Source: Pedobacter faecalis (GTDB lineage: Bacteria > Bacteroidota > Bacteroidia > Sphingobacteriales > Sphingobacteriaceae). From it: a stretch of DNA of 64,000 bases. The DNA lies in the NCBI RefSeq assembly GCF_030182585.1, contig NZ_JARXOW010000001.1, positions 1,550,001 through 1,614,000 of the forward strand, given 5' to 3'. Numbering within the stretch: position 1 is the stretch's first letter; the number at the start of each line of letters is the position of its first letter. A program made the translations under genes and the position numbers. The notes beneath the pieces are model-generated. The model made no database searches. It had not been told where the DNA came from and saw only the letters and a list, made by a program, of their open reading frames with translations. Shown piece after piece: positions 38,155-48,265 of this stretch.

Positions 38155-38685
38155 TTAATCTTCGCTGTCGTATTTTATCTGACCAACATGCTTGTCTATC
38201 TGCCATCTTCCGGTGCCTTCTTCTCCGATCACGTCGAAAAGCTCCAGGGCACGGCGGGCCTTGTATTCTTCTTCACGCTGCTCTTTGAAGAACCAGTTAA
38301 GGAATTCCAGAGTCACATAGTCCTGCTCTTTATGGCAGCGCGCAGCTATATTTTTGATAGATTGTGTTACGCTGATCTCCTGATCAAGCGCTTCTTCGAA
38401 CACTTCACGGAATGAATTATATTCTATTCTGATGTTGGTGATTTCCGGTGAAATAGCCGTTCCGCCCATATCAAGTACATATTTATAAAACTTAAGCTGA
38501 TGCATGCGCTCCTCTTCGGCCTGCTTAAAGAAGTAGTCGGCCGAATAGTCGTACCCATTGCGGTTGCACCACGATGCCATAGAGAGGTAAATCGCCGATG
38601 AATGCGCTTCCTTTTTTATTTGCTGGTTGATAAGTGCTTCTACATCTGATGAAATTAAGCACTTTGCGCGGATTATATCTTTCAT
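38155..38685 (-). CDS. ftnA: Non-heme ferritin
   Basis: Iron-storage protein forming a 24-mer cage. It has 176 residues. The four-helix bundle carries the ferroxidase residues: Glu in QQIKKEAHSSAIYLSMASW, the pair in QAEEERMHQLKFYKYV, and Glu/Gln in the later helices (LNWFFKEQREEEYKARRALE). No heme-binding Met of the bacterioferritin type is evident, so it is the FtnA class. It has a strong Shine-Dalgarno (AAAGGAG) and a -7 box TACTTTTG at 38722-38715. No Fur-like box was identified. Confidence 0.95.
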   Translation of the reverse strand: MKDIIRAKCLISSDVEALINQQIKKEAHSSAIYLSMASWCNRNGYDYSADYFFKQAEEERMHQLKFYKYVLDMGGTAISPEITNIRIEYNSFREVFEEALDQEISVTQSIKNIAARCHKEQDYVTLEFLNWFFKEQREEEYKARRALELFDVIGEEGTGRWQIDKHVGQIKYDSED

Positions 38686-39311: not shown

Positions 39312-40664
39312 ATGTGGAATTCGGCAATGAATAGGTTGAGGCGGCTTCATGACCGGTTGATCGGTAGTCCTGATCAGACCATCCTCCAGGCAAGGATTTT
39401 CCATGAGGTGAGCATTATTGCGCTTCTGCTCATCCCCGCAGCCATATTTTTTAATCTTTTTATAGGCGTTCCCTATGCCGGCTATGTACTCTCGGCAGCG
39501 TTTATTTTAGTGGCCTTACTGTTTGTTAATTCGCGGTACTTCGGAAACCTGAAAGCCAGCGTTGCCATTTTTACCTTTTCTATGGCCAGCGTTCTGGCGA
39601 TGAACTATTATATCAATTCGGGGGCACAGGGTCCTACCCTACTGCTTTTTGTGGTACTGATGGTTTTCACGATCTCGCTGATGCCTTCCGATCAGTATAA
39701 GTTCTGGGTGGTTTTTAACGCTGCTGTGGTTTCTGCCCTGGTGATATCGGAGTACTCAAATCCGCAGCTGATCAGCGAAAGTTACGAGGGACGGGCAAGC
39801 TATTTCATCGACATTTTAACAACATACATTGCCGTAATTGTCTGCATCGGCGTAGTGATGGCTTACCTCATCAGAAGCCACGAAACAGAGAAGGCTAAAG
39901 TGCTCAAGGCCTCCAAGGCCTTGAAACAAGCAAACGACGCCAAGACGAGGCTTTTGTCCATTTTGTCGCACGACTTACGATCTCCCCTGAATTCGATACA
40001 AAGTTTTCTGGAAATACTGATCGATTATAATTTGTCGGAACAAGAAGAGAAGGCAATTAAGAAGAGTCTGCTGCGGGAAACGAAAAATACTCAGGTAATG
40101 TTGTTTAACCTGCTTAACTGGACAAAATCGCAAATGGAGGGAGGCGTTACGGTAAATCTGCAGAAACTAAACCTCAACGAATCTGTGGAGGGATGTTTAA
40201 AAGTGCAGCGTGCGGCTGCTCTGGAAAAGATGATTACCATCCGTAACCTGACAGCACCAGACGCGAGTATCGTTGCAGACCCGGATATGTTTAGCCTTAT
40301 TATACGCAATCTGGTGAACAACGCGATAAAATTTACACATACCGGCGGTGACATCAGCATTTTTAGTGAGGTTGGAGAGGGGTTCACCAAGTTGATGGTT
40401 AGGGACAACGGAATAGGCATTTCGGAGGATAAGCAGGAAAAGTTGTTTTCGCTGGAAACGCAGTCGGCCTATGGCACAAATAAGGAGAAGGGTGTGGGAC
40501 TGGGGCTCTTGTTATGCTGGGAATTTACGGAAATGCAAGGCGGCAAAATTAGTTTCAGCAGTCGGCCGGGTGAAGGCACCTGTTTTACGCTGAAATTTCC
40601 TTCAGGTCAAAGTTCCGTAATATCAGCAGCTTACGCGTCTGGTGAAGGCAAGACCGTATATTAA
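39312..40664 (+). CDS. Membrane histidine kinase, orphan
   Basis: 450 residues. Residues about 30-190 form six or so transmembrane helices (IIALLLIPAAIFFNLFIGVP and others) with no large extracytoplasmic sensor. The HisKA domain has LLSILSHDLRSPLNSIQSFL with the phospho-accepting His. The ATP-binding domain has all boxes: NLVNNAIKFTHTGG (N), RDNGIGIS (G1) and GVGLGLLLCWEF (G2). No response regulator is adjacent; the gene stands alone between a divergent unknown gene and tRNA-Phe. All catalytic motifs are intact, unlike the kinases at 42276 and 44334. Confidence 0.93.
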   Translation: MWNSAMNRLRRLHDRLIGSPDQTILQARIFHEVSIIALLLIPAAIFFNLFIGVPYAGYVLSAAFILVALLFVNSRYFGNLKASVAIFTFSMASVLAMNYYINSGAQGPTLLLFVVLMVFTISLMPSDQYKFWVVFNAAVVSALVISEYSNPQLISESYEGRASYFIDILTTYIAVIVCIGVVMAYLIRSHETEKAKVLKASKALKQANDAKTRLLSILSHDLRSPLNSIQSFLEILIDYNLSEQEEKAIKKSLLRETKNTQVMLFNLLNWTKSQMEGGVTVNLQKLNLNESVEGCLKVQRAAALEKMITIRNLTAPDASIVADPDMFSLIIRNLVNNAIKFTHTGGDISIFSEVGEGFTKLMVRDNGIGISEDKQEKLFSLETQSAYGTNKEKGVGLGLLLCWEFTEMQGGKISFSSRPGEGTCFTLKFPSGQSSVISAAYASGEGKTVY

Positions 40665-40752: not shown

Positions 40753-40825
40753 GGTGCGGTAGCTCAGTCGGTAGAGCAATGGACTGAAAATCCATGTGTC
40801 GCCGGTTCGATCCCGGCCCACACCA
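40753..40825 (+). tRNA. tRNA-Phe (GAA)
   Basis: 73 nt. Anticodon stem ATGGA/TCCAT holds loop CTGAAAA with anticodon GAA. T arm GCCGG-TTCGATC-CCGGC. The acceptor GGTGCGG faces CCACACC, which leaves a C-A mismatch at pair 5-68; discriminator A. A 14-bp terminator follows 2 nt later. Confidence 0.95.
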
Positions 40826-40826
40826 C

Positions 40827-40869: not shown

Positions 40870-42129
40870 CTAAGGAATATATACTCTGGCTCTGAAGCGC
40901 CCACTGATGTGGGTCGTCTGAAGCAGCATAGGCCCGATTCCAGCATTTGGAACGGTAAAATTACCTTCCACCCATTTATTGTCCATTTTTGTAATGTTGA
41001 TACTTCCCCCACTTGGAACGAGGTCTGCCAGCAAAGGATCTACATAGGCACTGGTATACCCTCCGTGACCCATCAGAAAATGAAACTTGTTTCCGGTAGC
41101 AGTTAGATCATAAGCATAAGTACCTACGCCACCATTCCAGGTCAGTAAAAACTGACCACCACCCTCGGCTTCAGGATTTGATAAAAGATACCGCTGCCCC
41201 GATTTTACGGCAGGTGTGACCGGGAATTTAGTATAGGCAGAACCGCCTATAGTCAGCTCCGCCCATCCATCGCCCATAATTTCGATGTTGGACAACAATA
41301 AAAATGTACCTGTCATAGGTGCGCTCAGGGCCAGACTTACCGTCGCATTGGAAAAGCCGTTCACCGATGCGGGTGCCTGGTAAGTAATCGTATTGCCGTT
41401 CGAGCTAATGATGTTTCCAGGTCCAGTCAGATTCCAGGATTTAATGTATCTGGAAGGAAGTGGAACGGGTGTGCCGACCGGATAGCCAGGCTCAGTTCCC
41501 GGTTTACCCGTAAGCGGTTCCAGCAGGTCTTCGTATTTCGATTCTGTATAAATGAACGCCTTAATGACCTGTCTATCTCCAGGTTCCAGACTGGCATTCA
41601 GTGGAGAAAGAGAAACCCGGTTCATTACAGACCAGTCGCTGAAATGCTTGGTTTTAAAAGTTACTGTGCCCAATTGGACGTCATAACTGCTGGTGCCTAC
41701 AAACTTCCACACCCCACTGGCCATCTGATAGGCAAACCCGAAGGTCTCAACCATGGCCACAGAATCCGCATCATATGCATAAGTCACCGAAACAGGTTTT
41801 TCAAACTGTACGTCATGCGGTGTCAACCTGAATGACTGGCCCACGCCAGCGATATTGGTTGTTGTAATGGGCTCAATCCCGATGGTCACATACTCTTTCA
41901 AGGCACCAGCGGGAATATTAATGGCCACATTGCATGCTGGAGAAGCGAGTGCTCCTCCTTCCGGGCCTACACGCCCCGTCACTGCCGTACCCATCGAGCT
42001 CCCTTTGGGGCGGACTAATGCCGCCACCACGGGATTTTCTTCATCTCCTCGTTTCTCTTTGTCCTTTTTGCAAGCCGGCAGGCTGGCCATACACAAAACA
42101 CCTATCAGGTATGCACTTAATTTTTTCAT
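40870..42129 (-). CDS. ZU5-domain surface lipoprotein
   Basis: 419 residues. The lipoprotein signal ends CMASLPACKKDKE with the lipid Cys at residue 20. Residues about 50-160 look like a ZU5 domain: RVGPEGGALASPACNVAINI then PAGALKEYVTIGIEPITTTN and a DWSVMNRV end. The rest is beta-rich with no recognised domain. ZU5 domains in secreted bacterial proteins are usually interaction modules. The gene is divergent from the kinase operon at 42276 across a 146-nt gap containing a perfect 18-bp palindrome, so it may belong to that system. It probably sits on the outer membrane. Confidence 0.8.
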   Translation of the reverse strand: MKKLSAYLIGVLCMASLPACKKDKEKRGDEENPVVAALVRPKGSSMGTAVTGRVGPEGGALASPACNVAINIPAGALKEYVTIGIEPITTTNIAGVGQSFRLTPHDVQFEKPVSVTYAYDADSVAMVETFGFAYQMASGVWKFVGTSSYDVQLGTVTFKTKHFSDWSVMNRVSLSPLNASLEPGDRQVIKAFIYTESKYEDLLEPLTGKPGTEPGYPVGTPVPLPSRYIKSWNLTGPGNIISSNGNTITYQAPASVNGFSNATVSLALSAPMTGTFLLLSNIEIMGDGWAELTIGGSAYTKFPVTPAVKSGQRYLLSNPEAEGGGQFLLTWNGGVGTYAYDLTATGNKFHFLMGHGGYTSAYVDPLLADLVPSGGSINITKMDNKWVEGNFTVPNAGIGPMLLQTTHISGRFRARVYIP

Positions 42130-42225: not shown

Positions 42226-42272
42226 ATGGGTACTACTACCCATTTTCAGTACATTAATCTTATCTATATTTG
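42226..42272 (+). promoter_or_regulatory. Operator palindrome and promoter of the split-kinase operon
   Basis: ATGGGTA (42226-42232), spacer CTAC and TACCCAT (42237-42243) form an inverted repeat; each arm fits the TACYYMT heptamer bound by NarL-type regulators. The -7 box TATATTTG lies at 42265-42272 with only TTTT at -33 (42243-42246). The predicted start is at or next to the ATG at 42276, so the palindrome is centred near -41.5, the usual place for a class II activator. The mRNA would be leaderless. Confidence 0.65.
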
Positions 42273-42275
42273 AAT

Positions 42276-43688
42276 ATGATTGTCAGGCAGATTCTCTGTG
42301 TATTATTCTTGCTGGCTGCAAACTTGAACGCTGCCCCCAAAGAGCTTGTACTGAATTACGAACACCAGGTACCGGTACATTCTGGCACGCTGGAAGCGAT
42401 ATACGAAGACGAGCATGTCAAAAATATCGTTAATGGCTTCATGTTCGGGGCTTTACTTGCCCTGATGATTTACAGCCTGTATACTTATATCGCCACCGCG
42501 GACAAAACGCATTTATATTACTCAGGTTATCTGTGTTTCAGCATTCTGTTTTTACTGATCCGGAACGGCTATCTTACCCAAGGGATACCAGTTTGGAGTT
42601 TAAGTGGGCTCACCATAAGCTCGACGATCGCCTTGATTTTCAGCATACCCTTCAGTAATGGCTACTTGCGGTTGAAAGCCTATTATCCCAAGATTTACCG
42701 TCTTGGTAGATGGCTGATACCAATCTTACTGATTCCAATGCTCATTGATCTTTCCGGTCATCCGGTTATGGCCTTTAGAGTCCTGCAGGCATGCCTGGCT
42801 CTCGCAGCTGGCTATTGGCTGTCCGCTGCCTGCTTAAGCTTGATACAGGGCTACAAACCAGCATATCATTATTTGGCCGCGTTGACTTTCCTTCTAGTCT
42901 GTTACGGCGTTTATGAGGGCTTCCACTCCTCTATGAGCCTGCAAATGGGACTTTGCCTGCAAGCCCTGGTACTATCTTACGCGCTAGCTGTAAAACTGAA
43001 CGATTCTAAAAAGCAGACGATGCGCCTGCAAACTGAAATGCTGCAACAAACCGCCGGGTTCTCCAGGGAGCTCCTGATTGCGCAGGAAAATGAAAAGGAA
43101 AGTATCGCCGCTGAACTGAGCAACCAAGTCGGACAGCTACTGGTATTGCTTAAGAATGAAATGCATGCGCTGGAAAAACTTAGCGAGGGAACCAATACCG
43201 AACTTTTTGAAAATATCACTCGTGACATTGGAAAAGCCATAGAGGAGGTTAGCAATGTTTCATTTTCCCTTAGACCATATCAAATGGACACACTTGGACT
43301 AAAACGCTCCCTGGAACGACTGGCTGAGGACATGGCTCATGAAATATCAACAACCCTTCTAATAAAAATAGCGGAAATCGATCAGTTGCTGACAAGGGAG
43401 GCCCAGATGAACCTCTACAGAATCGTCCAGGAGCTGCTCAGCAATCTGGCCAAACATGCCGATGCCACCACTTGCAGCATCAACATCCAGATCTCCGAAA
43501 ATTATATCGTCCTGAAGTACAGGGACAATGGGAAAGGTTATGATACCGGCTACACTTCATCAGGACTGGGTCTGTCTGGCATCCGCGAACGCTGCAAACT
43601 TTTGGAGGCCGATCTTAAAATGAGCAGTAAACGCAACTCAGGCACCGAAGTTTATATCAATATACCTATGCAAATACTATCGACATGA
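42276..43688 (+). CDS. 7TM sensor kinase lacking the phospho-accepting His
   Basis: 470 residues from the ATG at 42276 (a TTG at 42270 lies in the -7 box). A signal peptide (IVRQILCVLFLLAANLNA) precedes about 30 extracytoplasmic residues and a 7TM region of the 7TMR-DISM type (about 50-245). The HisKA_3-like helix reads ESIAAELSNQVGQLL: the normal His is Ser282 (codon 43119-43121) and the next Asp is Asn. The ATP-binding domain is intact: VQELLSNLAKHADA (N box), YRDNGKGYD (G1) and GLGLSGIRER (G2). So it should bind ATP but cannot accept phosphate on itself. It overlaps the response regulator by ATGA. No DISMED2 sensor domain is present. Confidence 0.9.
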   Translation: MIVRQILCVLFLLAANLNAAPKELVLNYEHQVPVHSGTLEAIYEDEHVKNIVNGFMFGALLALMIYSLYTYIATADKTHLYYSGYLCFSILFLLIRNGYLTQGIPVWSLSGLTISSTIALIFSIPFSNGYLRLKAYYPKIYRLGRWLIPILLIPMLIDLSGHPVMAFRVLQACLALAAGYWLSAACLSLIQGYKPAYHYLAALTFLLVCYGVYEGFHSSMSLQMGLCLQALVLSYALAVKLNDSKKQTMRLQTEMLQQTAGFSRELLIAQENEKESIAAELSNQVGQLLVLLKNEMHALEKLSEGTNTELFENITRDIGKAIEEVSNVSFSLRPYQMDTLGLKRSLERLAEDMAHEISTTLLIKIAEIDQLLTREAQMNLYRIVQELLSNLAKHADATTCSINIQISENYIVLKYRDNGKGYDTGYTSSGLGLSGIRERCKLLEADLKMSSKRNSGTEVYINIPMQILST

Positions 43689-44329
43689 ACGAAAAAACCA
43701 CTATACTCATCGCTGATGATCATCCGATTTTCCTCAAGGGACTCAAAGAAGTCATAGAAACGGAACCGGGCTACGAAGTCATTTTTGAAGCAAAAAATGG
43801 GCTGGAAGCACTCGCCGTTGCCAAAACGCGTCGTCCTATGGTAACCATTCTAGACATAGACATGCCTGAAATGAACGGACTGGTTGCAGCCGAAGAGCTG
43901 ATTAAACTCGTTCCTGATGCAAATGTCATACTGCTCACCATGCATAAGGCGAAAGACACCTTCCTGCGCGCCCTGGATATTGGCGTGGCCGGCTATGTAT
44001 TGAAAGAAAATGCCGTGGTAGATATCATCCAGGCCATAGAAGCGGTCTTGACCGGAAATTCCTATATCAGTCCAGAAATGAGCTCCTTTCTGCTCAGCCA
44101 GCGCCGAACCGGAGCCAATAATCCCACGGCTATTGAGCTGCTGCATATCCTTACCCCCTCAGAAAGGAAAATTCTGAGGCTGGTCGGAAGCTACAAAAGT
44201 ACCAAGGCGATTGCTGATGAATTATTCATTAGTGAAAAAACGGTCTCTAACCATCGGATGAACATCCTGAAAAAGTTAAATCTGAATGGTAAGAACAGCC
44301 TCCTGCGTTTTGCCATTGAACATCGGTAA
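43685..44329 (+). CDS. LuxR/NarL-type response regulator
   Basis: 214 residues. The receiver domain (about 1-125) has the acidic pair in ILIADDHPIFLKG, the phospho-accepting Asp in TILDIDMPEMNG, the Thr in VILLTMHKAKD and the Lys in GYVLKENA, all intact. The LuxR-type helix-turn-helix (about 150-210) has LTPSERKILRLVGSYKSTKA and SEKTVSNHRMNILKKLNL. It lies between two homologous kinases with a 4-nt overlap upstream and a 4-nt gap downstream. It probably binds the TACCCAT palindrome before the operon. Confidence 0.95.
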   Translation: MNEKTTILIADDHPIFLKGLKEVIETEPGYEVIFEAKNGLEALAVAKTRRPMVTILDIDMPEMNGLVAAEELIKLVPDANVILLTMHKAKDTFLRALDIGVAGYVLKENAVVDIIQAIEAVLTGNSYISPEMSSFLLSQRRTGANNPTAIELLHILTPSERKILRLVGSYKSTKAIADELFISEKTVSNHRMNILKKLNLNGKNSLLRFAIEHR

Positions 44330-44333
44330 CCGT

Positions 44334-46142
44334 ATGACCCAAGGCTTCATCAAAGCTTTTTTAACAGTGATACTGGTCGTCTTTTTCAGTGCAAGACCAG
44401 GCTATTCCCAGGATATTAGACTCAGAAGCATTGAAAAAAGCTATGTCCTAAGGCACCCGATGTTTGTGGTCGACGAGGACAATAATTTGCCAACTGAGCA
44501 GATACCTTACGAAAACTTCAAGGCATCAGAATTCGCGACGCTGTCACTTGGATCCACAAAAGCCTCCGTATGGGTAAAAGTCCGCATACTTAATCAAAGC
44601 GATAAAGAGGACTGGCACATTCAAATCGATAGTCCCCCGGTTCTCGAGTCGGTCAGCGTTTATCAGAAAAACGGGGACCGACTGATAAAGATATTTACCA
44701 AAAAATCCACGACACCTAAAGCGACAGGCGAAGTGAGCGTAAACAATTTGCTGATCCCGGTTTCGATTCCAATCGATACAGAGGCAGAGATCTACATTAA
44801 AGCCAGCAGTAATAATATACTCAGGCTACCCATTAAATTCATCACCTTGCAGAAGGCTTTCGAAGAAAGTTACCTGACTGATCTATTGAATGGGGTTGTT
44901 TTTGGTATGCTAATCGCTTTTGCTATTTATAACCTGTTTGTATATATACTAACAAAAGAACAGCCCTATCTATACTATTTGGGAGCAATCTTCTTCTGGA
45001 GCCTAAACGTGTTTTTTTATAACGGTTTTCTGCCCGAAATGCTGGGGGCACTCGACTGGTTAAACAGCGCGGGAACAATCATCGCCCTGGCAAGTTTAAT
45101 GAGCATACTATTTACCAATTCGTTTCTTCAGACAAAAAAGAACAGCCCTCTTTTTAATAAAATCAAGGGATTGATGTTTTTCTTCTCCTTGATCATACTG
45201 CTGACTGATATTTTCTGCAAAGGACCCTACTCCTTCATGCTTGTACAATATCTAATGTACCCCTATTTCTTATATTGGTTTGGAGCAGGTGTGCAAAGTT
45301 TGAAAAATGGGTATAAGCCAGCGATTTATTTTTTATTAGGATTCGGATCGCTAATGCTAGGCAATGCAATATACAATTTGAAAGACCTGAATATTCTTCC
45401 GGATAACCTCATAACTCGCACGAGCATGCATTGGGGTACGCTACTGGAGGCTTTGATCCTATCTTACGCCCTTGCGAACAGGCTTAACTTTTACCGTAAG
45501 CAGCAGGAGCATATCCAGCGGAAAACTATTGCAGAAAAGAGCGCATTTCTTAAAGAGCTCCTTAAGCGCCAGGAGCAGGAAAAGAAACGTGTAGCCATGG
45601 AACTGCACGACAATATCGGCCAGCAACTGATCCTGATCAAAAACCGGTCCTGGCGCCTGCAGCAAATCAGCGAAGAACCCCTAAAAAATCTGATTACCAC
45701 TTCCATTGAACATATTGCAGCGATCATGGCTGAAGTTCGAAGCATACTTCATCGCCTCAGACCATACCAAATGGACCTTTTGGGATTGACACAAAGCATC
45801 AACGGATTAATTAACGATACATTTAACGACTACGAGATCAAACAGGGTAATACCGATGAGGTCAATCAGCATTTTGATGCAGACGAATCCATGCACATTT
45901 TCCGAATTCTCCAGTTGCTGTCCCAGGACATTCTAGCTTGTACCCCCGATAAACAGATCCGCTACGCCATCACCCGCAAAGCTTTCGCCGTAGATTTCTC
46001 ATTTGAATTTCAAACTACAGGCCAGTTGGAGAACAGTTCACCCGATATTCAAAACAGACTTGAACTGCTTAAAGGTGATATCAACATTCAATCTAGCCAT
46101 AATACCACCAAAATAACGGTTAACATACCCTTTAACCATTAA
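44334..46142 (+). CDS. 7TMR-DISM sensor kinase with degenerate ATP-binding domain
   Basis: 602 residues from the ATG at 44334. A signal peptide (IKAFLTVILVVFFSARPGYS) leads to an extracytoplasmic DISMED2-like sensor domain (about 25-180, ASVWVKVRILNQSDKEDWHI) and a 7TM region (about 185-390). The DHp helix EQEKKRVAMELHDNIGQQLI has the phospho-accepting His425 (codon 45606-45608). The following ATP-binding domain has lost its motifs: the N box reads FRILQLLSQDILACTPD (Asn replaced), G1 is absent (EFQTTGQL) and G2 is missing altogether. It therefore should not bind ATP. It is homologous over its whole cytoplasmic length to the kinase at 42276. Confidence 0.9.
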   Translation: MTQGFIKAFLTVILVVFFSARPGYSQDIRLRSIEKSYVLRHPMFVVDEDNNLPTEQIPYENFKASEFATLSLGSTKASVWVKVRILNQSDKEDWHIQIDSPPVLESVSVYQKNGDRLIKIFTKKSTTPKATGEVSVNNLLIPVSIPIDTEAEIYIKASSNNILRLPIKFITLQKAFEESYLTDLLNGVVFGMLIAFAIYNLFVYILTKEQPYLYYLGAIFFWSLNVFFYNGFLPEMLGALDWLNSAGTIIALASLMSILFTNSFLQTKKNSPLFNKIKGLMFFFSLIILLTDIFCKGPYSFMLVQYLMYPYFLYWFGAGVQSLKNGYKPAIYFLLGFGSLMLGNAIYNLKDLNILPDNLITRTSMHWGTLLEALILSYALANRLNFYRKQQEHIQRKTIAEKSAFLKELLKRQEQEKKRVAMELHDNIGQQLILIKNRSWRLQQISEEPLKNLITTSIEHIAAIMAEVRSILHRLRPYQMDLLGLTQSINGLINDTFNDYEIKQGNTDEVNQHFDADESMHIFRILQLLSQDILACTPDKQIRYAITRKAFAVDFSFEFQTTGQLENSSPDIQNRLELLKGDINIQSSHNTTKITVNIPFNH

Positions 46143-46151
46143 AATAAGCAA

Positions 46152-46213
46152 TACTACCCAGGTACTTGAACAGTACTGCCCATTCCCGGGCGTCCATTCC
46201 GAGCTTATTTTTG
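46152..46213 (+). promoter_or_regulatory. Direct-repeat operator and promoter of the hemerythrin-like gene
   Basis: TACTACCCA (46152-46160) and TACTGCCCA (46174-46182) are direct repeats 22 bp apart. The -7 box TATTTTTG is at 46206-46213 with no TTTG at -33. The second repeat ends 23 bp before the -7 box. In the kinase operon promoter the same TACTACCCA (42234-42242) ends 22 bp before its -7 box. Predicted start near 46217. Confidence 0.6.
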
Positions 46214-46276: not shown

Positions 46277-46957
46277 ATGGAAGAGATCAGATTTAACCTG
46301 TTTAGGAATGTACACAAAGGATTAAGGGCGCTACTGGCCGATACGCTTATTCTGCTTCAGCAAACAGACTTTCTAATTCAAACCGAAGCTAATACCGCCT
46401 TCGAAAGAATCAAACTGGTCTTGTTGCTGATGCACCAGCACACCAAGTGGGAAGTTGACTTCGTATTTCAAAAATTGGGCGCCAACGCACTAAGTATGAC
46501 TGGGTATTTTGCCAATCAACATTACCACGCAGACGCCCTAACCATGAATATGGATGTTCTTATCTGCGGACTCGAGGATGCAAAAAGCGAGACAGAAAAA
46601 GAAGCAATCTCTTATAGTCTGCTAGACGCCTTTGTGGAATTTACAGCCTATAATTTTACCCACATGACCATGGAGGAGCAATTAATCAATCCCCTCCTGT
46701 GGCACACTTTCAGCGACCAGGAACTACAGGCGATGCAAATGCAGCATTTAAACACTGCTAACAGCAAAAGTCAGCAGGCTTTCCTGCAATGGATGCTTAT
46801 TCACAACAGCAACAGAGAACTTGCCAACTGGCTGAATAGCATGAATTGTAGCGCAACGGCACCGCAGTTTAGGCGAGTCTTTGACCTCGCTCAGGAAGTA
46901 CTGTCGCCGGAGAGACTGGAATTCCTTAATCTAAATGTGTATGCCAGAGAAAATTAG
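46277..46957 (+). CDS. Hemerythrin-like helical protein
   Basis: 226 residues, no signal peptide or membrane helix, probably cytoplasmic. The pattern of metal ligands fits the hemerythrin-like cation-binding family: His13, then HTKWE (His55, Glu59), His82/His84 and HMTMEE (His129, Glu133). Overall sequence similarity to named members is not recognised by eye. Such proteins bind a di-iron centre and sense or carry O2, NO or help repair iron-sulfur clusters. It lies 134 nt after the degenerate-ATPase kinase and has a promoter with the same TACTrCCCA motif, so it is a likely target of that response regulator. Confidence 0.65.
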   Translation: MEEIRFNLFRNVHKGLRALLADTLILLQQTDFLIQTEANTAFERIKLVLLLMHQHTKWEVDFVFQKLGANALSMTGYFANQHYHADALTMNMDVLICGLEDAKSETEKEAISYSLLDAFVEFTAYNFTHMTMEEQLINPLLWHTFSDQELQAMQMQHLNTANSKSQQAFLQWMLIHNSNRELANWLNSMNCSATAPQFRRVFDLAQEVLSPERLEFLNLNVYAREN

Positions 46958-47008: not shown

Positions 47009-48265
47009 ATGAAAAAATTAATCTTAGTCTCAGCCCTTCTGCTGGCCGGCACCAATTCAAACGCTCAGAGCTTTTTAAACAAGTTGAAACAAAAGGCAGA
47101 AGACATTGCCTCCAAAACTGTGGATAAAGCACTGGAAGGAAAGAGCAGCAAAACTGCAGAAGCCAGCAAAACGGGCCAACCTCCAGCGAAAGCCGAAAGC
47201 GGCCATACCACAACAAACCCGGCACTCACCAGTACTACCACGTACGACTTCGTTCCTGGATCTAAAGTATTGCTGGTAGATGATTTCTCCCAGGACGCGC
47301 CTGGCTCTTTTCCTCTGAAATGGTACACCAGAAGTAAAGCTGAGGTCGTCACCTTGAACACCGCCAAAGGAAACTGGTTGCGCGTTTATCCTGGAACATT
47401 CGTAAGTCCGGTCGTAAACGTTGCGGAGAATACAACGATTGAATTTGACCTGATCATGAACTGGCCGAAGGCGGGTGGCTATTTGGTGCCAGCAATTGGC
47501 TTTGCCCTTTACGACCGGGGGAATAAAGGAGAGATTCTATCATATGACTACCGCCTTAAGAATTGCTTGAAATTCAATATCGCACCCTACCGATCGGAAG
47601 CTGTGGTACAACTGACCTCCTATGAAAACGGAGCCAAGAAACTGGAAAGTGATAAATACCGTGTTGCAAATTTCGAAAGCAAGGTAGGCAGCGTAATTCA
47701 TGTTGCCATCAGCATCCAAAAAGAGAGAGTCAGGATCTGGATAGATAAGGAAAAAGTATTTGACCTGCCTCAAGCGGCCCCGCTCGACGGAAATTTAAAT
47801 CAGCTAAAAATTGACATGTCCGGCTCCAATTACACCAATGATCAGCTTGGCTATTATGTATCCAACTTCCGTTTCGCGGAAGGCAGTTCAGACAATCGCT
47901 CTAAACTACTGACCACAGGGAGACTGGAAACTAGCGGAATCCTGTTCGCTACCAATTCCGCTGAAGTAAAATCAGACAATGAAGGGACGATTAAGGAAGT
48001 AGCGGCTGCTATGATGGAAAACCCCGATCTGAAAATCAAAATTATAGGCCATACCGACGCAGTAGGGAAACCTGAAGCCAACCTGATCCTGTCTGCAAAG
48101 CGAGCAGAAGCGGTTCGCGACGCGCTCGTTAAAATTTACAAAATCAGTCCCGATCGAGTCGAAACCGAAGGAAAAGGATCCAATGCACCTGTTAGCGATG
48201 ATATTAGCGAAGCTGGTAACGCCAAGAACAGAAGAGTCGAGTTCATAAGACAAAGTGGCAAGTGA
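47009..48265 (+). CDS. OmpA-family outer-membrane/peptidoglycan-binding protein
   Basis: 418 residues. A signal peptide (KLILVSALLLAGTNSNAQ) precedes a Lys/Ala/Ser-rich linker (about 22-75). The middle (about 75-295) is a beta-rich domain resembling a LamG/jelly-roll fold (FEFDLIMNW-like IEFDLIMNWPK, VRIWIDKEKVFDLPQ). The C-terminal OmpA domain (about 310-415) contains LFATNSAEVKSDNEGTIKEV, KIIGHTDAVGKPEANLILSA and GNAKNRRVEF, with the Asp and Arg that bind diaminopimelate. It follows the hemerythrin-like gene by 51 nt. Confidence 0.88.
   Translation: MKKLILVSALLLAGTNSNAQSFLNKLKQKAEDIASKTVDKALEGKSSKTAEASKTGQPPAKAESGHTTTNPALTSTTTYDFVPGSKVLLVDDFSQDAPGSFPLKWYTRSKAEVVTLNTAKGNWLRVYPGTFVSPVVNVAENTTIEFDLIMNWPKAGGYLVPAIGFALYDRGNKGEILSYDYRLKNCLKFNIAPYRSEAVVQLTSYENGAKKLESDKYRVANFESKVGSVIHVAISIQKERVRIWIDKEKVFDLPQAAPLDGNLNQLKIDMSGSNYTNDQLGYYVSNFRFAEGSSDNRSKLLTTGRLETSGILFATNSAEVKSDNEGTIKEVAAAMMENPDLKIKIIGHTDAVGKPEANLILSAKRAEAVRDALVKIYKISPDRVETEGKGSNAPVSDDISEAGNAKNRRVEFIRQSGK

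What the first reader, a model, noticed from the sequence alone, without database searches (positions are those of the whole stretch)
42276..46142. Complementary split kinase pair: one 7TM kinase without His, one with His but without ATP site, flanking one response regulator
The kinase at 42276 has a complete ATP-binding domain (N, G1 and G2 boxes) but Ser282 where the phospho-accepting His should be (ELSNQVGQ). The kinase at 44334 has the His (ELHDNIGQ, His425) and a full DISMED2 sensor, but its ATP domain has lost the Asn of the N box, G1 and G2. The two share the 7TM and DHp regions by homology, so they look like a duplicated kinase that split its duties. Together with the single LuxR regulator between them (4-nt overlap and 4-nt gap) this would be an obligate heterodimeric kinase. 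Rhodobacter CheA3/CheA4 is the known precedent for such splitting in a chemotaxis kinase; for 7TM LytS-like kinases I know of no described case.
Basis: partly seen in the sequence, partly recalled or inferred. Interest (0 to 1): 0.87.

Follow-up and report, generated by a model that had tools for sequence, protein, structure and literature searches.

The report
Two broken kinases make one sensor
Two neighbouring membrane sensor proteins have each lost the half of the kinase machinery that the other keeps, and because related bacteria show both the unsplit form and a half-way stage, the pair very probably works only as a two-part sensor switch.

Summary
Confirmed. KIN1 (42276-43688) keeps a full ATP site but has Ser for the phospho-accepting His; KIN2 (44334-46142) keeps the His and DxxxQ motif but no ATP site; a LuxR-type regulator lies between. 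The split is fixed by evolution: the His is replaced in 32 of 32 KIN1 relatives and kept in 41 of 41 KIN2 relatives. In 399 family genomes both occur in the same 7, adjacent in all. Chitinophaga silvatica has the split too. Three genomes of its genus show a half-way stage, KIN1 intact and KIN2 ATP-dead; others have one intact kinase. So KIN2 probably lost its ATP site first. A palindrome at fixed distance from the promoter element is shared by split, half-way and most single systems, so the split kinase probably serves a working circuit. Best reading: an obligate heterodimer in which KIN1's ATP domain phosphorylates KIN2's His, and KIN2 phosphorylates and dephosphorylates the regulator. Corrections: HisKA_3/DesK-like, not LytS-like; not a private duplication; this KIN1 has lost its sensor domain. 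Dimerisation and phosphotransfer are untested.

The parts
42226..42243 (.). 18-bp palindromic operator ATGGGTACTACTACCCAT (idealised consensus ATRGGYARTAYTRCCYAT), predicted binding site of the regulator, centre 30 bp before the TAnnTTTG element
42265..42272 (+). TATATTTG, Bacteroidota-type -7 element (TAnnTTTG, consensus recalled); start codon after 3 further bases: predicted leaderless transcript
42276..43688 (+). KIN1: 7TM kinase subunit with intact ATP domain, Ser282 in place of His, no DISMED2 domain
43119..43121 (+). Ser282 codon AGC at the position of the phospho-accepting His
43685..44329 (+). LuxR/NarL-type response regulator, Asp57 in DIDMP, usual acidic pair, Thr and Lys
44334..46142 (+). 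KIN2: DISMED2 sensor, 7TM, HisKA_3 with His425 and DxxxQ, shrunken ATP-less CA domain
45783..46139 (+). KIN2 pseudo-CA domain (residues 484-602): in the model it still folds like DesK's ATP-binding domain; ATP-site residues and lid are lost
46144..46161 (.). operator copy 1 after KIN2 (2 mismatches), 53 bp from TAnnTTTG
46166..46183 (.). operator copy 2, weak (3 mismatches), 22 bp further, 31 bp from TAnnTTTG at 46206
46277..46957 (+). hemerythrin-like protein (Pfam PF01814 E 6e-4, below its cut-off), predicted target gene
47009..48265 (+). OmpA-family protein, possible further target
40870..42129 (-). ZU5-domain lipoprotein, divergent neighbour, relatives near several split and single systems

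Best explanation
KIN1 and KIN2 form an obligate membrane heterodimer through their 7TM, linker and DHp helices. The CA domain of KIN1 binds ATP and phosphorylates His425 of KIN2 in trans. KIN2-P passes phosphate to Asp57 of the LuxR-type regulator. KIN2, which keeps HisKA_3's DxxxQ motif in full, also dephosphorylates the regulator, alone or in the complex. The phosphorylated regulator binds the palindrome near -42 and activates its own operon and the hemerythrin-like/OmpA genes. The signal enters mainly through the sensor domain of KIN2; KIN1 is drifting towards a catalytic subunit. Shown: complementary residue loss, its conservation, co-occurrence, gene order, half-way forms, operator spacing. 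Inferred: heterodimer, trans phosphorylation, phosphatase role, activation, division of sensing. Split kinase, phosphatase on the His subunit and self-activation together predict a switch-like response, by analogy with CheA3/CheA4.
For: Column counts: His KIN1 0 of 32, KIN2 41 of 41, intact relatives 20 of 20. Acidic residue after His: KIN1 Asp 3 and Glu 1 of 32, KIN2 Asp 41 of 41. N-box Asn KIN1 32 of 32, KIN2 2 of 41 (one ends before it). G1 Asp KIN1 32 of 32, KIN2 0 of 40 with letters. The same 7 of 399 genomes carry both, adjacent in 7 of 7, both motif sets read in 7 of 7. Split pair also in Chitinophaga silvatica. Half-way pairs in 3 genomes. The two other HisKA_3 places in the genome lie at no 7TM match, and the other three 7TM kinases have their own His and ATP domain. 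Promoter spacing conserved. KIN2's C-terminus keeps the CA fold in its model. In DesK, among the closest solved relatives, one CA touches the DHp helix of the other protomer (PMC5231405, passages).
Against: No binding or phosphorylation data. HisKA_3 kinases may not all act in trans (PMC8199190, passage: the loop rule may not hold for NarX and NarQ). The heterodimer was not modelled. KIN1 keeps the Gln of DxxxQ in 32 of 32, so it may share in phosphatase chemistry. Two KIN2 members keep an Asn in the N box.
Confidence: 0.76

Rival explanations
1. KIN1 and KIN2 form separate homodimers; KIN1 homodimers phosphorylate KIN2 homodimers between dimers, so KIN2 serves as a membrane-bound phosphotransfer protein, much as CheA3 does for CheA4.
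For: In CheA3/CheA4 the CA domain of one protein binds the His domain of the other only transiently (PMC3591291, passages). Both KIN1 and KIN2 keep 7TM and DHp parts.
Against: In KIN2 the His sits in the DHp helix itself, not in a separate mobile domain. Homology of the two DHp domains and the half-way stage make mixed dimers the easier route.
Confidence: 0.11
2. KIN1 is a pseudokinase regulator and KIN2 a phosphatase only; the regulator is phosphorylated by another kinase or by acetyl phosphate.
For: KIN2 keeps DxxxQ in 41 of 41. The genome has 57 HATPase_c matches, whose proteins were not examined one by one.
Against: It leaves unexplained why KIN1 keeps the ATP-site residues counted in 32 of 32 and KIN2 its His in 41 of 41. 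No other HisKA_3 protein with a 7TM part was found in the genome.
Confidence: 0.09
3. One or both kinases are decaying genes and the pattern has no function.
For: KIN2's CA domain changes faster than its DHp (37-75% against 71-88% identity to the window in nine relatives compared); the window's KIN1 lost its sensor domain.
Against: No stop inside KIN1 or KIN2 in any of the 7 genomes; motifs fixed in every member that holds the region; same losses in different genera; operator and promoter spacing kept.
Confidence: 0.02

Closest known systems
CheA3/CheA4 split kinase of Rhodobacter sphaeroides
   Same: One protein gives the ATP domain, the other the His; neither autophosphorylates alone; the His protein is also the phosphatase (PMC3591291, passages).
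   Different: Chemotaxis kinases of a cytoplasmic cluster. CheA4 lacks the P1 domain, CheA3 the dimerisation and kinase domains: whole domains are missing. Here both are membrane sensor kinases that keep a DHp and a CA domain and lost active-site residues.
Hik36/Hik43 split kinase of Synechocystis
   Same: His part and CA part on two proteins that interact with each other and with one regulator (PMC7656254, passages).
   Different: PilL type with an HPt domain in Hik36, genes far apart (same passages). No interaction test exists for KIN1 and KIN2.
DesK/NarX-type (HisKA_3) sensor kinases
   Same: DHp and CA architecture and the H-D-x-x-x-Q motif; DesK is the best solved match over DHp plus CA (for KIN1 the lone VraS CA domain scores higher).
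   Different: These are self-sufficient homodimers (recalled, and PMC5231405 passages for DesK).
RetS (7TMR-DISM kinase) and its complex with GacS
   Different: RetS/GacS pairing is regulatory (recalled); no complementary loss of His and ATP site is known to me.

Membership tests
Split histidine kinase (CheA3/CheA4 kind) | His and ATP-binding residues on separate proteins | tested here: met
Split histidine kinase (CheA3/CheA4 kind) | The two parts occur together | tested here: met
   same 7 of 399 genomes, 7 of 7 adjacent; also L092
Split histidine kinase (CheA3/CheA4 kind) | Neither part autophosphorylates alone, the mixture does | not testable with these tools
   needs purified proteins
Split histidine kinase (CheA3/CheA4 kind) | CheA-type domains (P1, P3, P5) | tested here: not met
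   no such Pfam family in the scan of KIN1 and KIN2 up to E 1
HisKA_3 (NarL-family sensor kinases) | HisKA_3 domain over Pfam cut-off | tested here: met
   KIN2 35.3 bits, cut-off 24; KIN1 not detected although homologous by alignment
HisKA_3 (NarL-family sensor kinases) | His plus ATP site in one chain | tested here: not met
   neither KIN1 nor KIN2
7TMR-DISM receptors | PF07695 7TM domain | tested here: met
   both kinases over cut-off
7TMR-DISM receptors | DISMED2 sensor PF07696 | tested here: met
   KIN2 yes; KIN1 of this genome no, but 25 of the 32 KIN1 family members yes
LytS-like kinases (His_kinase, PF06580; accession recalled) | His_kinase domain | tested here: not met
   absent from the Pfam scan up to E 1
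LuxR/NarL response regulator | Receiver plus GerE domain with the usual Asp | tested here: met

The most novel reading that the evidence does not exclude
A natural split of a dimeric transmembrane sensor kinase whose evolution can be read stepwise in living species: single intact kinase, then a second copy with a dead ATP domain beside an intact one, then loss of the His in the intact one, which makes the two subunits mutually dependent. With conserved self-activation and the phosphatase on the His subunit it would be a built-in bistable switch and a worked example of a ratchet from homodimer to obligate heterodimer.
Probability: 0.58. Interest if true: 0.88.

Novelty: new variant of a known kind. 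Interest (0 to 1): 0.79.

Why it matters
The split kinases found in print here are chemotaxis or PilL proteins with the His on a separate domain. A split inside a DHp-dimerised membrane kinase forces an asymmetric dimer with one His and one ATP site. That makes cis or trans phosphorylation, half-site activity and separation of kinase from phosphatase testable without engineered mutants. The half-way genomes give a natural series for studying how obligate heteromers arise.

Tried and rejected
Private duplication of KIN1 and KIN2: rejected by tree and test. KIN1 split plus KIN1 intact as a clade without the single kinase L152: rejected too (p 0.006). Two independent His losses: disfavoured (p 0.0105 and 0.0116 in the two forms tested), but the groups were named after the tree was seen and the program warned that the join of C. 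silvatica KIN1 with the other His-less KIN1 may be a long-branch artefact. One or two losses of KIN2's ATP site: not resolved (p 0.475); if there were two, the order of the two losses in the Pedobacter line is not fixed. A wider sample with P0197 as query: 24 of 395 genomes of the class matched, and apart from the window's own genome these were 686-755 aa frames, judged another 7TM kinase type by length and partial coverage only. P0197 and intact P0180 share a contig length of 122067 and may be a further half-way pair; the locus was not fetched. Mobile-element origin: a tRNA-Phe lies near the locus in the window, a tmRNA in L090 and a tRNA-Leu in L091, nothing in the eight other loci searched; not conclusive. 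KIN1's model was not sent to a fold search. In some searches a greedy ORF filter may hide a regulator in GC-rich loci (L153, L155, L157, L159), so its apparent absence there is not a result.

Paper searches for a described 7TM or HisKA_3 split kinase (open-licence library only) gave none beyond CheA3/CheA4 and Hik36/Hik43; one search returned no paper at all. So 'not described' is limited to those searches. PMC4053972 (one passage) proved irrelevant.
Full report
WHAT IS THERE. The window holds KIN1 (42276-43688), a LuxR-type response regulator (43685-44329) and KIN2 (44334-46142), all on the + strand with a 4-nt overlap and a 4-nt gap. KIN1 matches 7TMR-DISM_7TM and HATPase_c but not HisKA_3. 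KIN2 matches DISMED2, 7TM and HisKA_3 but not HATPase_c, even at E 1. The two are 31% identical over the 7TM, DHp and CA parts. The regulator has the usual acidic pair, Asp57, Thr and Lys. The held genome is 3.63 Mb and 96% complete. A named record with a 100% KIN2 match is Pedobacter deserti SYSU D00382.

IS THE SPLIT REAL. Two protein searches were made; each scored about 8,000 candidates, and for KIN1 the best 120 of 179 hits were listed. I took P0001-P0038 as the KIN1 side and P0121-P0166 as the KIN2 side. From the 38, P0035, P0036 and P0038 were dropped (fragments without the region) and P0033, P0034 and P0037 set aside (intact), leaving 32. From the 46, P0166 was dropped (fragment), P0162, P0164 and P0165 set aside (intact) and P0163 (the Chitinophaga silvatica member) treated below, leaving 41. 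These six intact ones and P0167-P0180 make 20 intact relatives. Counts: at the His position KIN1 has 29 Asn, 3 Ser and 0 His; KIN2 has 41 His. The next, acidic, position is Asp in 3 and Glu in 1 of 32 KIN1 and Asp in 41 of 41 KIN2. The Gln of DxxxQ is kept in 32 of 32 and 41 of 41. The N-box Asn is kept in 32 of 32 KIN1 and 2 of 41 KIN2 (one of the 41, P0150, ends before it). The G1 Asp is in 32 of 32 KIN1 and 0 of 40 KIN2; the two G1 glycines are in 2 and 1 of 40 KIN2. The first Gly of G2 is in 32 of 32 KIN1 and its column is empty in all KIN2; the second is in 3 of 40. The 20 intact relatives have every one of these residues. The loss of the His is therefore not a sequencing error.

CO-OCCURRENCE. 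In 399 genomes of the window's family, KIN1 at E 1e-45 or better was found in 7 and KIN2 at 1e-60 or better in 7, the same seven. Random placement would give this with probability 3e-15, though the genomes are related and only the best 3-4 candidates per genome were scored. In all seven the order is KIN1-regulator-KIN2, and both motif sets read as expected. Five belong to the window's genus and two to another; the named records among them are Pedobacter and Sphingobacterium. A scan of named genome contigs gave 22 loci. Six of these (L087-L092) carry an ATP-less KIN2, and all six have a His-less KIN1 two genes upstream. By scores and coordinates five of the six are the same genomes as above, or near-identical ones; the new one is Chitinophaga silvatica (L092), where KIN1 reads KLNRTVNDSL and KIN2 ELHDSIGQKL with no G1 or G2. 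The window's genome offers no obvious other partner. Its other three 7TM kinases have a HisKA-type His and their own ATP domain. Besides KIN2 only two HisKA_3 places were found, neither at a 7TM match.

HOW IT AROSE. Among 79 genomes of the genus of C. silvatica, 14 carry relatives at E 1e-50. Three (L149, L150, L151) carry the same triad followed by the hemerythrin-like gene, but there KIN1 is intact (ELHDSVGQQL, LNNIVKH or VNNIVKH, DNGKG, GLGL) while KIN2 has its His and no ATP site (TLLQQAL, FTPDPY). One is C. silvatica itself. The other ten show one kinase; nine read as intact at the motifs (L152, L153, L155-L159; L123, L124), although in G887 (L157) the gene lies in two pieces, and in the tenth (L154) the frame ends before G1. 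A query with C. silvatica KIN2 in 394 genomes of that family found the C. silvatica pair and seven single kinases (two of the seven shared). All seven single loci have a regulator downstream and an intact kinase. The simplest order is thus: an ATP-dead partner first, loss of the His in the intact partner second. The tree (57 proteins, 397 columns, His box and CA domain left out) puts all His-less KIN1 in one clade (100/98). It joins them with the intact KIN1 and one single kinase, L152 (99/97). KIN2 is one clade only weakly (73/31). Two separate His losses are disfavoured (p about 0.01); one or two ATP-site losses cannot be told apart (p 0.475), and with two the order in the Pedobacter line stays open; KIN1 plus KIN2 as a private pair, apart from the single kinases, is rejected (p 3.6e-10). 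The groups tested were named after the tree was seen, and the program warns that the join of C. silvatica KIN1 with the other His-less KIN1 may be a long-branch effect. So the pair descends from two old branches of one kinase family.

OPERATOR AND REGULON. Upstream of KIN1 lies ATGGGTACTACTACCCAT. An idealised consensus, ATRGGYARTAYTRCCYAT, was made from the split loci and scanned in 27 loci with up to 3 mismatches (0 to 0.6 sites expected per locus from shuffles). Three of the 27 repeat a genome, leaving 24. In 19 of 24 a site lies before the kinase gene with its centre 30-31 bp before a TAnnTTTG element: 8 of 8 split loci, 3 of 3 half-way loci and 8 of 13 single loci. In two more single loci (L094, L097) a site lies 53 bp before TAnnTTTG ahead of the gene preceding the kinase. 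L120, L152 and L153 show no such arrangement. Several loci are near-copies (L149-L151; L123, L124, L155, L156), so these are not 24 independent cases. TAnnTTTG as the Bacteroidota -7 element is recalled. In the window the start codon follows three bases after it, so the transcript is probably leaderless and the operator centre lies near -42, a classical activator place (recalled). Behind KIN2, of 8 loci examined, seven (window, L090, L091, L128, L129, L149, L150) have a site of 1-2 mismatches 53 bp before a TAnnTTTG element and, 22 bp further, a weak second copy (3-5 mismatches) at 31 bp; L092 shows only a poor copy (6 mismatches) at 31 bp. The same 53-bp placing recurs behind the regulator of four single loci (L093, L094, L095, L097). 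The gene behind KIN2 is hemerythrin-like in all seven but L091, where the OmpA gene follows. In the window's whole genome five sites have up to two mismatches (reversed control: two); three of the five are in this locus, one of them, at 41233, inside the ZU5 gene. Sphingobacterium L089 lacks all three neighbour genes within the stretch held, and L088 lacks the hemerythrin-like one. The circuit therefore looks local and self-activating; what it senses is unknown.

MECHANISM. In NarX, a HisKA_3 kinase, the DxxxQ motif after the His is required for phosphatase activity (PMC3510030, passages). In DesK the phosphotransfer complex is asymmetric, with one CA on the helix of the other protomer (PMC5231405, passages). 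A KIN1:KIN2 dimer fits this: one ATP site, one His, across the dimer. The phosphatase would stay with the His subunit, as in CheA3/CheA4, for which modelling gives ultrasensitivity and bistability if the free His protein is the main phosphatase (PMC3591291, passages). That the dimer forms, that transfer is in trans and that KIN2 is a phosphatase are inferences.

NOVELTY. Split kinases are known: CheA3/CheA4, and Hik36/Hik43 (PMC7656254, passages). I found none in 7TMR-DISM or HisKA_3 sensor kinases in searches of the held open-licence library. The finding is a new variant of a known kind, with an unusually complete evolutionary series.

Noticed in passing
window 40753-40826 and loci L090, L091: A tRNA-Phe stands next to the locus; L090 has a tmRNA and L091 a tRNA-Leu within about 6 kb of KIN1; eight other loci searched have none. 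With the patchy spread (7 of 399 genomes) this hints at transfer by islands, no more.
   Followed up: partly
P0180 and P0197 (contig length 122067, Cytophagaceae MAG): Probably on one contig: an intact kinase and a relative with His and N box but degenerate G1 and no G2, perhaps an independent half-way pair.
   Followed up: partly
L120:4888-5640: In Paraflavitalea a short kinase without a Pfam check (251 aa, His and ATP-site motifs present) precedes the single intact 7TM kinase and its regulator.
   Followed up: no
window 39312-40664: A separate HisKA-type kinase lies just upstream, beyond the tRNA and ZU5 genes.
   Followed up: no
G000:C1:1614194-1614796 (just beyond the window's end): A further 7TM kinase with a receiver-like C-terminus lies at the edge of the window.
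   Followed up: no
window 38155-38685: Ferritin-like gene near the hemerythrin-like predicted target; a link to iron or oxygen is possible but untested.
   Followed up: no
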